From: Legionella taurinensis
GTDB lineage: Bacteria; Pseudomonadota; Gammaproteobacteria; Legionellales; Legionellaceae
Direction of reading: 5' to 3'
Assembly: GCF_900452865.1 (NCBI RefSeq)
Contig: NZ_UGOZ01000001.1
Span: 1,116,001 to 1,180,000, forward strand
Length of the DNA stretch: 64,000 nt
Of this stretch, positions 12,629 to 52,291 are shown in pieces. Made by a program: the position numbers and the translations under genes. The notes under the pieces are model-generated. The model saw only the letters and a list, made by a program, of their open reading frames with translations. It was not told the origin of the DNA and did not search any database. The stretch's first letter is position 1; each line of letters opens with the position of its first letter.

Positions 12629-12654
12629 TCAACGTTGCAAGGGGATTGCGGTTA

Positions 12655-13650
12655 ATGGACAAGGAGCGTTTTCTGGCATTTAAATATTGGCCGCACGTGA
12701 TCACGGTGACGCTCATCGTCTTGGCCTTTGCCGGTTATCGCTATTTTGCTTATTACGATACGCGTTCCAATGATGCCTATGTTTCAGCCAACGTGATCAA
12801 TGTCGCTTCGTTGGTTTCCGGTCCAATCAGCGCCATCTACATAAAAGAAAACCAGAACGTCAAAAAAGGACAAAAACTGATCGAGATTGATCCGCGCCCG
12901 TTTAAATATGCCATGGAGAAGGCCAGGGCTGATTATAAAATGAGCCAGGTCAATTATGAAAATAACAAACTGGCTATTACCGTGGCTGAAGAGAAACTCA
13001 GACAAACCCAATCCATTCTGGCATTAAGCAAAGATCATTACCAACGCTATCAAAAACTGCAGAACGAGGGCGCTTTGGCTGAAATTCAATTGATTAATAT
13101 TGAAGCCAAAATCAAGGAACAGGAGGCACGGGTCATCGCCGCCAACGAACGGTTACGCATTGCTCAGATTACTCTCGATGACAACGAAGTGCGGGCGGCC
13201 AAGGCAAAGTATGACAAAGCAGCCTATTTATACACTAACACGCTCATTACTGCGCCAGCGGATGGCTATGTCACCAATTTTAATTTACGCCGCGGTCAAT
13301 ACATTGCCACGGGCGAAGGGCTGTTTGCGCTTATCGAAACCAAACGCTGGTGGGTCGTGACCCGCTACCGCGAAACGGCCATTCGTTTAATCCAGCCGGG
13401 CGACAAGGCCACCATCAAACTGGACATGTATCCTGGTAAAACCTTTCATGGCCATGTGGGAAGTATTGGTTGGGGCATTAATCGCGTTCAAGCCGGCAGT
13501 GTTGCCCCGTCAACCCTGGCTTACCTCGAAGCCACCGAGGATTGGATTAAAATTGCACAGCGCTTTCCGGTGCGCATAGAAATCGACGATGTTTCCCCCG
13601 AATACCCCCTAAGGATAGGTGCCAGTGCGACAACCGTTACCTACCGCTGA
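12655..13650 (+). CDS. HlyD/EmrA/AaeA-type membrane fusion protein
   Basis: Periplasmic adaptor, 331 residues from the ATG at 12655 (preceded by AAGGGGATT). An N-terminal membrane anchor at about residues 13-30 is followed by the barrel-sandwich motif (SNDAYVSANVINVAS, VSGPISAIYIKENQNVKKGQ), a long alpha-hairpin and a second half-motif (ITAPADGYVTNFNLRRGQYI). With the overlapping FUSC gene it makes an AaeAB-like pump, a type that exports aromatic acids in E. coli; the substrate here is not known. Confidence 0.88.
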   Translation: MDKERFLAFKYWPHVITVTLIVLAFAGYRYFAYYDTRSNDAYVSANVINVASLVSGPISAIYIKENQNVKKGQKLIEIDPRPFKYAMEKARADYKMSQVNYENNKLAITVAEEKLRQTQSILALSKDHYQRYQKLQNEGALAEIQLINIEAKIKEQEARVIAANERLRIAQITLDDNEVRAAKAKYDKAAYLYTNTLITAPADGYVTNFNLRRGQYIATGEGLFALIETKRWWVVTRYRETAIRLIQPGDKATIKLDMYPGKTFHGHVGSIGWGINRVQAGSVAPSTLAYLEATEDWIKIAQRFPVRIEIDDVSPEYPLRIGASATTVTYR

Positions 13651-50315: not shown

Positions 50316-51461
50316 ATGCTCTCATGCTATTTAAAGTATCATCTTTTTCGCCAAGTCCGCGTTTTTGAAGCACGTTCGGAAGAGGAAAAAGAGCATGTGT
50401 TTAATTTCCGCTACCGGATTTACCACGAAGAGTACAAGATGATTGAGCCAGGCTACGATCATCAACGAAAAATCCTGAAGGATGAGCTCGATACCCACAA
50501 GCAGATCATTTTAACCTACACCGTCACTAAGCAAGCGATATCCAGTACCTGTCGCTCCCACTATTTTCAACAGACGGCCTGCCCCAGAGAAATGGACGGG
50601 AAATATGGTCTTCCAGAGTTATCCATCCCATCGCAGCACACGCTAGCCTTGTCAGAACGCTTGGCCGTGGATAAAAACATCCGCGGCAAATACCTCGCCA
50701 TGGTCCAAACGGTGTACATTGCCACGCGTTTGATTCGCGATCTGTCGACCTATTTCTCCTTTGCCAGCTGCGCACCGAGCCTGCTCAGGCATTATTCAAG
50801 ATTAGGTTACAGGCCTTATACGTCCAAACTGTTGCAGTTTGATGATCGGCTGGAAATCCCCATTGCGGTTATACCCGATTTAAAATTTCTCAAAGAATCG
50901 GGCTCGCCCGTTTATCCCTTGATGAAAAAATATTGTGATCCCGCCTTATTGAAGCAATATGAACATTATCGTCCAGATATTCTGAAAAATTACCTGACCC
51001 AGGATGCGTCGCTGGATGATCTGGCGAGCGATGCGTTTCTCAAACGGAGAAAATCATTCTTTTACCATTTGAAAAGACCCACGGCTGATTTTCTAATTCG
51101 CAATGGCTTTTTTTTAACGCTGCCTGAGAATGGGGTACTTTACACCGAAAAAGAGCATCAACAGTGCCAGTTTGTGGTGATTTCTGGTCAGTTAATCCTG
51201 TCTAAGCGGGGACACACGCTGATTCAGTTGCATGCAGGCGACATTGTCGGTGAGTTTGGGACGTTTCATGACAATTACTGCCGGTGTGTCACGGTGAAAG
51301 CAATCAGTGATGCCCAGTTACTGGTTCTGCCGCGCGGTATTTTGCGGAAACTATACTGCTTTGACACCCAACTGTACGCTAATTTTACCGAGTCCTATCT
51401 CAAAAGCATCGCGCTCAGGGAGAAAAAACTGATTTGTAAATTGATTTCCAGCCAACGATAA
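50316..51461 (+). CDS. GNAT acyltransferase fused to a cyclic-nucleotide-binding domain
   Basis: A 381-residue two-domain protein. Residues 15-200 resemble the N-acyl amino acid synthase/autoinducer-synthase branch of GNAT enzymes (FNFRYRIYHEEYKMIEP, an SERLAVDKNIRGKYLA core). Residues 265-370 form a cNMP-binding beta-roll with GQLILSKRGH, LHAGDIVGEFGTF and Arg323, though the usual R-A pair of a phosphate-binding cassette is altered. The two together suggest acyl transfer to an amine under control of a nucleotide or as a structural module. The next gene, 11 bp on, encodes an E1-like enzyme. The start ATG has only a weak ribosome site. No family member of known function comes to mind. Confidence 0.7.
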   Translation: MLSCYLKYHLFRQVRVFEARSEEEKEHVFNFRYRIYHEEYKMIEPGYDHQRKILKDELDTHKQIILTYTVTKQAISSTCRSHYFQQTACPREMDGKYGLPELSIPSQHTLALSERLAVDKNIRGKYLAMVQTVYIATRLIRDLSTYFSFASCAPSLLRHYSRLGYRPYTSKLLQFDDRLEIPIAVIPDLKFLKESGSPVYPLMKKYCDPALLKQYEHYRPDILKNYLTQDASLDDLASDAFLKRRKSFFYHLKRPTADFLIRNGFFLTLPENGVLYTEKEHQQCQFVVISGQLILSKRGHTLIQLHAGDIVGEFGTFHDNYCRCVTVKAISDAQLLVLPRGILRKLYCFDTQLYANFTESYLKSIALREKKLICKLISSQR

Positions 51462-51472
51462 CAGGAGCCGTC

Positions 51473-52291
51473 ATGACGACCGACCTTTTTATAAGAAATT
51501 CAGGCTATGTTTCAGAAAAAGTTCAGCAGCGGTTGGCTGAAATGACCATTTTAATTGCCGGCTGCGGTCTGGGGAGTTACCTGGCTGAGGGACTCGTGCG
51601 TTTCGGTTGTCATCATCTGGTGTTGGTTGATCATGACACCATCGATACCCATAACCTGAACCGTCAGGATTTTATGTTCCGTGACGTAGGACGGCTTAAA
51701 ACGGAAGCGCTGGCTGAACGCTTACGCTTGATTAATCCTGACGCGACCATTCAATGCGTTAGCCAGCGGGTATCGGCAACCAATGCGGAAACCTTAATCA
51801 AAGGCGTTGATCTGGTGATCGATACCATTGATTTTTTGAGCATGGAGGATCTAATTCCATTTTATGAACAATGCTATTTGCAAAAGCGCACGGTGATCAG
51901 CGCCCTTAGCGCCGGGTTCGGTGCCGTGGCTTTCTACATTCCCGGCACGTTGCAGACGCACAACTGGTTTACCAAAATTTTTGGCATCGACGATTCGGAA
52001 GTGAGCGCGCCCAAAGAGTATGCTTTTTATTTTGAACGGTTACTGACGACCCTTGGACTTTACCTGCCTGAAGAGGTTACCCGTAATTTAATGGGTGTTC
52101 TTGAATTAATGAAAGAAAAGCGTCCTTGTCCTGCTTCACAGGTTTCAGCCGGGGCCTTTGCCGCGGCATCGTTGTGTGTGACGATTGTTCATCGCATGCT
52201 TTCAGAGCAGACGCTTGTCGAGTTACCGTATGCGATGGCCCTGGACATGAATCGTATTGCAGCCATTCCCGCTTTCTCGTTAGCACCATAG
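51473..52291 (+). CDS. ThiF/MoeB/E1-like adenylyltransferase
   Basis: A 272-residue E1-superfamily protein. The nucleotide-binding GCGLGS is at residues 30-35, DHDTIDTHNLNRQ with the ATP-contacting Asn-Arg pair at 53-65, and an IDTIDF acidic stretch follows at about 116-121. The paired CxxC zinc site of MoeB/ThiF is missing, and no ubiquitin-like partner gene is nearby. E1-like enzymes activate a C-terminal carboxylate by adenylation. It forms a tight two-gene unit with the acyltransferase-cNMP protein (ATG after AGGAGCC), suggesting that both act on one molecule. Confidence 0.85.
   Translation: MTTDLFIRNSGYVSEKVQQRLAEMTILIAGCGLGSYLAEGLVRFGCHHLVLVDHDTIDTHNLNRQDFMFRDVGRLKTEALAERLRLINPDATIQCVSQRVSATNAETLIKGVDLVIDTIDFLSMEDLIPFYEQCYLQKRTVISALSAGFGAVAFYIPGTLQTHNWFTKIFGIDDSEVSAPKEYAFYFERLLTTLGLYLPEEVTRNLMGVLELMKEKRPCPASQVSAGAFAAASLCVTIVHRMLSEQTLVELPYAMALDMNRIAAIPAFSLAP

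What the first reader, a model, noticed from the sequence alone, without database searches (positions are those of the whole stretch)
50316..52291. Two-gene unit: acyltransferase-cNMP fusion with an E1-like enzyme
Sequence shows an 11-bp gap between a protein that joins a GNAT/N-acyl-amino-acid-synthase-like domain to a cyclic-nucleotide-binding fold, and a ThiF/MoeB-type protein without the zinc CxxC pairs. From family knowledge, E1-like enzymes adenylate carboxylates and the GNAT branch joins acyl groups to amines. Together they could make or conjugate an acylated amino acid or peptide tag, with the cNMP domain as sensor. No such pathway is known to me. The substrate and the ligand are guesses.
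Basis: partly seen in the sequence, partly recalled or inferred. Interest (0 to 1): 0.75.

Follow-up and report, generated by a model that had tools for sequence, protein, structure and literature searches.

The report
Sensor-gated fatty amino acid gene pair
Two neighbouring genes in a Legionella species probably make a fatty-acid-tagged amino acid under control of a cyclic-nucleotide sensor and then activate it or close it into a ring; both enzyme types are known separately, but this pairing, with a divergent second enzyme and no oxidase found, looks new.

Summary
In detail: a 381-aa N-acyl amino acid synthase (NAS) fused to a cNMP-binding domain, then after 11 bp a 272-aa ThiF/E1-like protein without CxxC. 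The pair recurs in G009 and, at another site, in Fluoribacter gormanii (55%/53%), 3 of 143 family genomes with the window's own.

'No such pathway' is wrong. NasP is a NAS reported to be directly activated by cAMP (passage), and NAS + ThiF + flavin-oxidase clusters make N-acyl oxazolones. Genome G377 joins a NAS-cNMP fusion to an oxazolone-type ThiF and oxidase.

What differs: the window's ThiF misses the oxazolone-type family cut-off (99.7 of 266 bits) and falls in a third, uncharacterised clade. One other member of it, in Rhizobium leguminosarum, also follows a NAS-like gene without an oxidase; two others do not. No oxidase of that type was found in the window's genome.

Best reading: cyclic-nucleotide-gated acylation, then ATP-dependent carboxylate activation, probably ring closure to a saturated azlactone. 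New variant of a known kind. No chemistry was tested; structure prediction failed.

The parts
50316..51461 (+). [quoted passage not shown]
   Evidence: full-length homologues; alignments
50397..50822 (+). NAS domain (residues 28-169); invariant in a 7-protein alignment: F31 R32 Y33 D59 R80 R115 C152 P154 L156 G164 R166 Y168
   Evidence: PF21926 E 1.3e-5, 25.5 bits vs cut-off 27
51117..51353 (+). cNMP-binding domain (residues 268-346) with phosphate-binding-cassette residues G312, E313, R323
   Evidence: PF00027 E 7.2e-10; E. coli CRP G71/E72/R82 equivalents kept in 10 of 10 C-terminal fusions; the S83 position is C here
51463..51467 (+). AGGAG ribosome-binding-site-like motif in the 11-bp gap before the second start codon
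   Evidence: read directly
51473..52291 (+). CDS, 272 aa: ThiF/E1-like adenylating enzyme of a clade separate from ThiF/MoeB/TcdA and from the oxazolone-type ThiF; N63 R64 Q65, K76 and D117 in place, no CxxC, no catalytic-Cys loop
50257..50285 (+). weak sigma-70-like promoter match upstream of the pair; no more such sites in the region than expected by chance
   Evidence: 4 found; 3.0 +/- 1.7 in shuffles

Best explanation
A two-gene biosynthetic unit. The NAS domain joins an acyl chain (from acyl-ACP or acyl-CoA) to the amino group of an amino acid; the fused domain binds a cyclic nucleotide (most likely cAMP) and gates that step, as reported for NasP. The ThiF-like protein then adenylates the free carboxylate of the N-acyl amino acid with ATP, and the amide oxygen closes the ring to a saturated N-acyl oxazolone (azlactone), as TyzB and TrzS do, but without the flavin-oxidase step that adds a double bond there. 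Shown here: domain make-up, retained adenylation and nucleotide-pocket residues, coupled inheritance of the two genes, and recurrence of NAS-cNMP and NAS-ThiF pairs elsewhere. Inferred: substrates, ligand, ring closure, and that both enzymes act on one molecule.
For: Domains and gap. The pair is kept in 3 of 143 family genomes (G000, G009, F. gormanii G068), with both proteins diverging alike (55%/53%) at a different site in F. gormanii. L. rubrilucens (G008) has only a remnant at the syntenic site. Genome G377 has a 410-aa NAS-cNMP fusion divergent from an oxazolone-type ThiF (431.6 bits to PRK08223, cut-off 266) and its FDO. The R. leguminosarum TP16 plasmid pRlX5 has a NAS-like acyltransferase (TIGR03694, 135.7 bits, cut-off 111.95) 26 bp upstream of the closest non-Legionellaceae relative of the window's ThiF that I found (34% over 250 aligned positions), with no FDO match in six frames of 12.7 kb. 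Control: among the 29 best-scoring ThiF loci fetched in the class search, a NAS model match within about 1.5 kb occurs in 2 of 8 oxazolone-type loci and in 0 of the other 21. NasP and Oxz/Tyz/Trz chemistry: PMC4897644 passages, PMC10404671 and PMC12856293 sections. The own genome has 2 class III cyclase domains.
Against: The window's ThiF is outside the oxazolone-type clade (98/95 split) and scores 99.7 bits against that family's 266 cut-off, so its chemistry may differ. No FDO: no match in six frames of the 64-kb window, and the genome's single PF00881 hit does not match the FDO model. Two of the five full-length Legionellaceae NAS-cNMP genes (G006, G007) have no ThiF beside them. Two other third-clade ThiF genes (G081, Riemerella) have no NAS match nearby. 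The FeeM score is just under the curated cut-off, and the FeeM/Nas354 catalytic glutamate could not be placed. The R. leguminosarum acyltransferase has no significant BLASTP match to the window's (E 0.48). The CRP S83 position is C/H/Y and T127/S128 are L/I in the Legionellaceae proteins, so the ligand is uncertain.
Confidence: 0.45

Rival explanations
1. Ligase reading: the ThiF-like protein adenylates the N-acyl amino acid and passes it to an external nucleophile (an amine, a second amino acid, a peptide or a protein), giving an acylated dipeptide or amide rather than a ring.
For: The third clade is distinct from the oxazolone-type ThiF; MccB, a related E1-like enzyme in the hit list, makes a peptide-nucleotide bond (recalled). 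A saturated azlactone would be a reactive acylating agent (recalled chemistry).
Against: No acceptor enzyme or carrier protein was recognised among the 7 neighbouring genes scanned; the functionally tested ThiF partners of NAS enzymes in the papers read are cyclases (PMC10404671, PMC12856293).
Confidence: 0.2
2. The two genes are neighbours without a shared pathway: the NAS-cNMP makes N-acyl amino acids on its own and the ThiF does something else.
For: NAS-cNMP occurs without a ThiF match nearby in G006, G007, G234 and G204; two of the other third-clade ThiF genes have no NAS nearby.
Against: 11-bp spacing, the pair kept together at a different genomic site in F. gormanii with equal divergence, and a NAS-ThiF pair of the same ThiF clade in Rhizobium.
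Confidence: 0.17
3. A cNMP-controlled protein acyltransferase with an E1 for a ubiquitin-like modifier (protein modification rather than metabolite synthesis), similar to mycobacterial cAMP-activated Kat/Pat plus an E1.
For: cNMP-GNAT Kat enzymes are cAMP-activated (PMC5861322 passage); generic E1 similarity.
Against: Kat has the cNMP domain at the N-terminus of the GNAT domain; here the order is reversed and the acyltransferase part matches FeeM, with no Acetyltransf_1 hit. No ubiquitin-like, E2 or JAB family among the 7 neighbours scanned; genes farther off were not checked.
Confidence: 0.06
4. An anti-phage defence module (Pycsar- or CBASS-like: nucleotide sensor plus E1).
For: Weak matches of the cNMP part to Pycsar TIR effectors (best E 6e-6) and of the ThiF core to E1-E2 proteins (best E 5e-22).
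Against: Matches cover only the shared sensor or the E1 core; the proteins have no E2 or TIR domain; of 7 window neighbours scanned, 5 match ordinary families (hydrolases, solute-binding protein, GDPD, transglycosylase) and 2 match none.
Confidence: 0.03

Closest known systems
NasP, cAMP-activated N-acyl amino acid synthase (Clardy & Brady 2007; paper not held, seen as a title in reference lists and one sentence in PMC4897644)
   Different: No ThiF partner is mentioned in what I saw; NasP's sequence could not be compared.
Oxz / Tyz / Trz N-acyl oxazolone pathways (P. rubra OxzAB; M. tuberculosis TyzACB and TrzAS)
   Same: NAS next to a ThiF-type ATP-dependent enzyme that acts on the N-acyl amino acid.
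   Different: Those have a flavin-dependent oxidase fused or adjacent; the oxazolone-type ThiF is another clade here; no fused cNMP domain is described in the sections I read.
Stieleriacine / thalassotalic / kyonggic acid clusters (PMC12479983; abstract and one section seen)
   Same: NAS, ThiF and nitroreductase genes together, in two strains with gaps under 10 bp or overlaps.
   Different: A nitroreductase accompanies the ThiF in the four producer genomes described; no cNMP fusion is described in the section read.
Nas343/Nas354: NAS fused to a PilZ domain (PMC4897644 passages)
   Same: NAS domain joined to a C-terminal second-messenger-binding domain.
   Different: PilZ (c-di-GMP) instead of cNMP; that paper presumes they are not in a pathway operon.
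Mycobacterial Kat/Pat (Rv0998, MSMEG_5458; PMC5861322 passage)
   Same: GNAT-fold acyltransferase controlled by a cNMP domain in the same chain.
   Different: Opposite domain order; protein lysine acetylation.
PDB 9EGB/9EGC/9EGD 'THIF-type NAD/FAD binding fold domain-containing protein'
   Same: Closest solved relatives of the window's ThiF (E 5.5e-23, residues 6-252 of 272).
   Different: Function and source not found (one search found no paper on them).

Membership tests
[quoted passage not shown]
   PF21926 E 1.3e-5 but 25.5 bits, cut-off 27; distant NAS-cNMP relatives pass it (44.4, 40.9 and 36.7 bits; 101.8 and 87.6)
[quoted passage not shown] PMC4897644 passage) | tested here: inconclusive
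   E114 is invariant in the five Legionellaceae proteins, but other members align S or G there; no FeeM sequence was available to place Glu95
NasP-type cAMP-gated NAS | cNMP-binding domain in the same chain | tested here: met
   PF00027 E 7.2e-10; G71/E72/R82 equivalents kept in 10 of 10 C-terminal fusions. That NasP itself carries a fused cNMP domain is inferred from its title, not read
NasP-type cAMP-gated NAS | activation by cAMP | not testable with these tools
   the CRP S83 position is C and T127/S128 positions are L/I, so the ligand is open
Oxazolone biosynthesis (Oxz/Tyz/Trz) | NAS gene adjacent to a ThiF gene | tested here: met
   11-bp gap; pair kept in G009 and G068
Oxazolone biosynthesis (Oxz/Tyz/Trz) | ThiF of the oxazolone-cyclase group (here NCBIfam PRK08223; I equate the two because ThiF-FDO fusions hit it, not from a publication, and TyzB/OxzB/TrzS sequences were not at hand) | tested here: not met
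   99.7 bits vs cut-off 266; separate clade, 98/95; two Legionellaceae ThiF-FDO fusions score 404.4 and 370.5
Oxazolone biosynthesis (Oxz/Tyz/Trz) | flavin-dependent oxidase adjacent or fused | tested here: not met
   no FDO-model match in six frames of the window; own genome has 1 PF00881 hit that does not match the FDO model
Oxazolone biosynthesis (Oxz/Tyz/Trz) | ATP-dependent cyclisation of the N-acyl amino acid | not testable with these tools
   adenylation residues N63/R64/Q65, K76, D117 align with ThiF/MoeB/TcdA
ThiF/MoeB sulfur-carrier adenylyltransferases | curated family score, zinc CxxC pairs, catalytic Cys loop | tested here: not met
   best is PRK08644 at 115.7 vs 159; no CxxC and the loop is absent in the alignment
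Mycobacterial cNMP-GNAT protein acetyltransferase (Kat/Pat) | cNMP domain N-terminal to a GNAT acetyltransferase domain | tested here: not met
   order is acyltransferase then cNMP; no Acetyltransf_1 hit
E1-E2 anti-phage systems (CBASS, Bil) | E2 domain or partner cyclase/effector | tested here: not met
   272-aa single-domain ThiF; the PADLOC matches listed cover only the E1 core

The most novel reading that the evidence does not exclude
The window's ThiF belongs to an uncharacterised third clade of E1-like enzymes that makes an oxidase-free, saturated and reactive N-acyl azlactone (or couples it onward), and in Legionellaceae its supply is switched by a cyclic nucleotide at the first enzyme. 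Cyclic-nucleotide levels would thus set the output of a homoserine-lactone-like lipid, with NAS-cNMP genes elsewhere fitted with interchangeable tailoring enzymes (ThiF, ThiF+FDO, haem-oxygenase-like oxidase, methyltransferase).
Probability: 0.22. Interest if true: 0.65.

Novelty: new variant of a known kind. Interest (0 to 1): 0.43.

Why it matters
PMC12856293 (discussion) calls the physiological role of oxazolones a major unresolved question. A pathway whose first enzyme carries a cyclic-nucleotide domain would tie this lipid class to second-messenger signalling, and comparing NAS-cNMP genes with different neighbours would show which tailoring step follows the gated one.

Tried and rejected
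Nitroreductase in the own genome: one PF00881 hit, not FDO-like, so a distant desaturase of that type is unlikely. The own genome's two haem-oxygenase-like hits do not match the NAS-associated family. Plasmid records: no match to the NAS-cNMP protein; the G377 NAS-cNMP protein matched 38 records, none over 80% of its length, and the 15 listed lie over its cNMP half. Defence reading: only partial-domain matches. Promoter and terminator scans: no more sites than in shuffles. Papers on 9EGB/9EGC/9EGD: none (two chance hits). A solved-structure route to the FeeM glutamate gave only weak hits (mainly GNAT enzymes, sortases and autoinducer synthases). The genome-contig scan returned 3 Legionellaceae loci only (its patterns were very specific). 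The NAS tree has long branches, so I do not claim how many times the NAS-cNMP fusion arose; 40 of 42 rows were kept (two under 110 aa dropped), four loci that duplicate others were left out, and of seven Legionellaceae FeeM hits that I tried to add only one entered. The fatty-acid-hydroxylase neighbour seen in L144 was not found in its sister locus L145. The second ThiF tree dropped from the first (49 rows) two long-branch rows (L142, L049) and 12 of 21 '_z' rows, and added three plasmid rows (38 in all). The NAS model used in the control was built from window-type proteins and may miss other NAS branches.
Full report
OBSERVATION. Pfam gives, for the first, FeeM (N-acyl amino acid synthase, residues 28-169, E 1.3e-5, 25.5 bits against a cut-off of 27) and cNMP_binding (residues 268-346, E 7.2e-10); for the second, ThiF (E 1.2e-34). 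The second protein has six cysteines and no CxxC. Against the nearest genome (G009) dN/dS is 0.034/0.328 for the first gene and 0.062/0.515 for the second, faster than three neighbouring genes (dN 0.009 to 0.014) but clearly purifying.

DISTRIBUTION. The host is a Legionella: its syntenic relative G008 is the L. rubrilucens record, judged by equal contig length; F. gormanii = G068 and L. quinlivanii = G007 rest on the same test. In 143 family genomes the NAS-cNMP protein matches 8, of which 5 are near full length (G000, G009 at 93%, G068 at 55%, G006 and G007 at 51%), one is a remnant (G008, two short pieces) and two are cNMP-only matches (G071, G142). The remnant lies between the G008 homologues of the genes that flank the pair. 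The ThiF search matched 69 of 143 genomes, but close homologues (89% and 53%) occur only in G009 and G068, directly downstream of the NAS gene in each; other matches score at most 64.3 bits. In F. gormanii the ORFs next to the pair match nothing in the window at E 1e-5; one ORF several kb away matches an unrelated window gene (31%, window 12646-13650). The two proteins have diverged equally (55% and 53%), so the pair seems to travel as a unit. In G006 and G007 the NAS-cNMP gene has no ThiF beside it; a haem-oxygenase-like oxidase gene faces it instead. The five Legionellaceae NAS-cNMP proteins form one clade (100/100).

THE NAS-cNMP FUSION IS A KNOWN KIND. Profile searches found C-terminal NAS-cNMP fusions also in G234 (two genes) and G204 (369 class genomes), in G518 (397 phylum genomes) and in G377 (found through its ThiF). 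In G654 and G842 the order is reversed, cNMP then NAS (Pfam on G654 only). In 10 of 10 C-terminal fusions the residues equivalent to G71, E72 and R82 of E. coli CRP are kept; the two reverse fusions have A at R82. At S83 the Legionellaceae proteins have C, H or Y, and at T127/S128 they have L/I (which CRP residues touch cAMP is recalled). So the pocket core is intact but the ligand cannot be read off. In print, NasP is a metagenomic N-acyl amino acid synthase that cAMP directly activates (title of Clardy & Brady 2007 and one sentence of discussion, both seen in PMC4897644; the paper itself is not held). The same paper describes NAS fused to PilZ. cNMP-GNAT control is also known from mycobacterial Kat (passage in PMC5861322).

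THE NAS-ThiF LINK IS KNOWN, BUT THIS ThiF IS DIFFERENT. In M. tuberculosis, TyzA N-acylates an amino acid, TyzB (ThiF) closes it to an oxazolone with ATP, and TyzC (a flavin oxidase, FDO) desaturates it; TrzAS does the same with a ThiF-FDO fusion, cyclising first (abstracts and sections of PMC10404671 and PMC12856293). The NAS/ThiF/nitroreductase trio is also linked to N-acyl dehydrotyrosines (PMC12479983 abstract and one section). Four Legionellaceae loci examined (G068, G090, G091, G103) have OxzB-like ThiF-FDO fusions of 652-663 aa next to a 265-278 aa protein, the two of these scanned having no Pfam match; the two fusions scored against NCBIfam reach 404.4 and 370.5 bits to PRK08223. The window's ThiF reaches only 99.7 bits against that family's cut-off of 266. 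In a 38-row tree it falls in a 6-row clade (98/95) with the R. leguminosarum, G081 and Riemerella proteins, apart from the oxazolone-type group (94/89) and from ThiF/MoeB/TcdA (97/90); several rows have long branches. TyzB, OxzB and TrzS themselves were not at hand for the tree. The window's protein keeps the adenylation residues and, like the oxazolone type, lacks the zinc and catalytic-cysteine loops. Its best solved relatives are 9EGB-9EGD, with no function in the name.

OTHER PAIRINGS. (1) G377: a 410-aa NAS-cNMP fusion, divergent from a 288-aa ThiF (431.6 bits to PRK08223) followed by an FDO; this joins NasP-like control to an oxazolone-type set. (2) R. leguminosarum TP16 plasmid pRlX5: a 235-aa acyltransferase (TIGR03694, 135.7 bits, cut-off 111.95; Autoind_synth E 9e-6; FeeM 21.7 bits, under its cut-off) ends 26 bp before a ThiF 34% identical to the window's over 250 aligned positions; no FDO match in six frames of the 12.7-kb stretch; a GGDEF-EAL gene lies upstream. 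That acyltransferase has no significant BLASTP match to the window's (E 0.48), so these look like separate pairings of one ThiF clade with a NAS. Control: of the 29 best-scoring ThiF loci fetched in the class search (which matched 261 of 369 genomes), a NAS match within about 1.5 kb was found in 2 of the 8 oxazolone-type loci and in 0 of the other 21. The two other third-clade members looked at (G081 and Riemerella) have no NAS match nearby, which counts against a strict link.

PARTNERS OF THE TEN C-TERMINAL NAS-cNMP GENES. ThiF in 4 (window, G009, G068, G377), haem-oxygenase-like oxidase in 3 (G006, G007, G234 copy 1, the last overlapping by 4 bp), a SAM methyltransferase overlapping by 4 bp in 1 (G518), none recognised in 2 (G234 copy 2, on a 5.1-kb contig, and G204). 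The pattern suggests one gated acylation step with exchangeable tailoring; it is an inference from gene order alone.

MECHANISM. Most likely the NAS makes an N-acyl amino acid when the cNMP domain is loaded, and the ThiF activates its carboxylate with ATP. By analogy with TyzB and TrzS, ring closure gives an oxazolone. No FDO match lies in the window and the genome's one nitroreductase-family hit does not match the FDO model, so the product should stay saturated, as an azlactone that could hydrolyse or acylate amines (recalled chemistry). Two class III cyclase domains in the genome make a cyclic-nucleotide signal plausible. The acyl chain, the amino acid, the ligand and the ring closure are untested. 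The oxidase-free version, the third ThiF clade and the cNMP fusion together are the new part; NAS with cyclic-nucleotide control and NAS with ThiF are each known.

LITERATURE LIMITS. No paper of the six held both 'cyclic nucleotide-binding' and 'N-acyl amino acid synthase'; one of 11 papers held both 'cyclic nucleotide' and 'FeeM' (PMC13197932, on lung disease, not opened). Of 61 papers only 15 were listed. The library lacks most subscription journals, and de Rond 2021 and the NasP paper are not held, so 'new' means only not found in these searches. Structure prediction could not be completed.

Noticed in passing
L042:8140-8847, L043:10381-11088, L070:6458-7210, L146:6192-6941, L073:2788-3438: Haem-oxygenase-like iron oxidase genes (PF14518 or the family model built here) sit beside NAS-cNMP or plain NAS genes in five genomes (the L073 match is below the Pfam cut-off; L043 was matched by its 96% identity to L042); their role on N-acyl amino acids is unknown to me.
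   Followed up: partly
L135:6143-9613: Genome G377: NAS-cNMP fusion divergent from an oxazolone-type ThiF-FDO set, beside a polysaccharide-export gene.
   Followed up: yes
L155:2324-6795: R. leguminosarum plasmid pRlX5: GGDEF-EAL protein, then an exosortase-type acyltransferase, then a ThiF of the window's clade; the Mtb trzAS locus is also described as lying beside c-di-GMP genes (PMC12856293 discussion).
   Followed up: partly
L144:6405-8146 and L145:5536-6636: Reverse-order cNMP-NAS fusions in two genomes of one genus; the CRP R82 position is A, so the sensor may not bind a cyclic nucleotide. L144 has a fatty acid hydroxylase overlapping upstream, not found in L145.
   Followed up: partly
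[quoted passage not shown]
   Followed up: no
L051 (G008, L. rubrilucens), between 8298 and 8722: Only a short remnant of the NAS gene remains at the site where the window and G009 have the intact pair.
   Followed up: partly
L157:3030-8124: Shinella plasmid run of same-strand genes: unknown protein, ThiF, unknown protein, GNAT, then a hypothetical protein with a faint FDO-model match (14.6 bits).
   Followed up: no
L042:11796-13019: Phage-type integrase two genes from the NAS-cNMP gene of G006; ORFs of the same lengths (407 and 243 aa) lie near the NAS gene in G007 but were not scanned. Consistent with a mobile island.
   Followed up: no
window:56591-58303: 570-aa ORF with no Pfam match at E 0.001, 94% identical in G009.
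   Followed up: no
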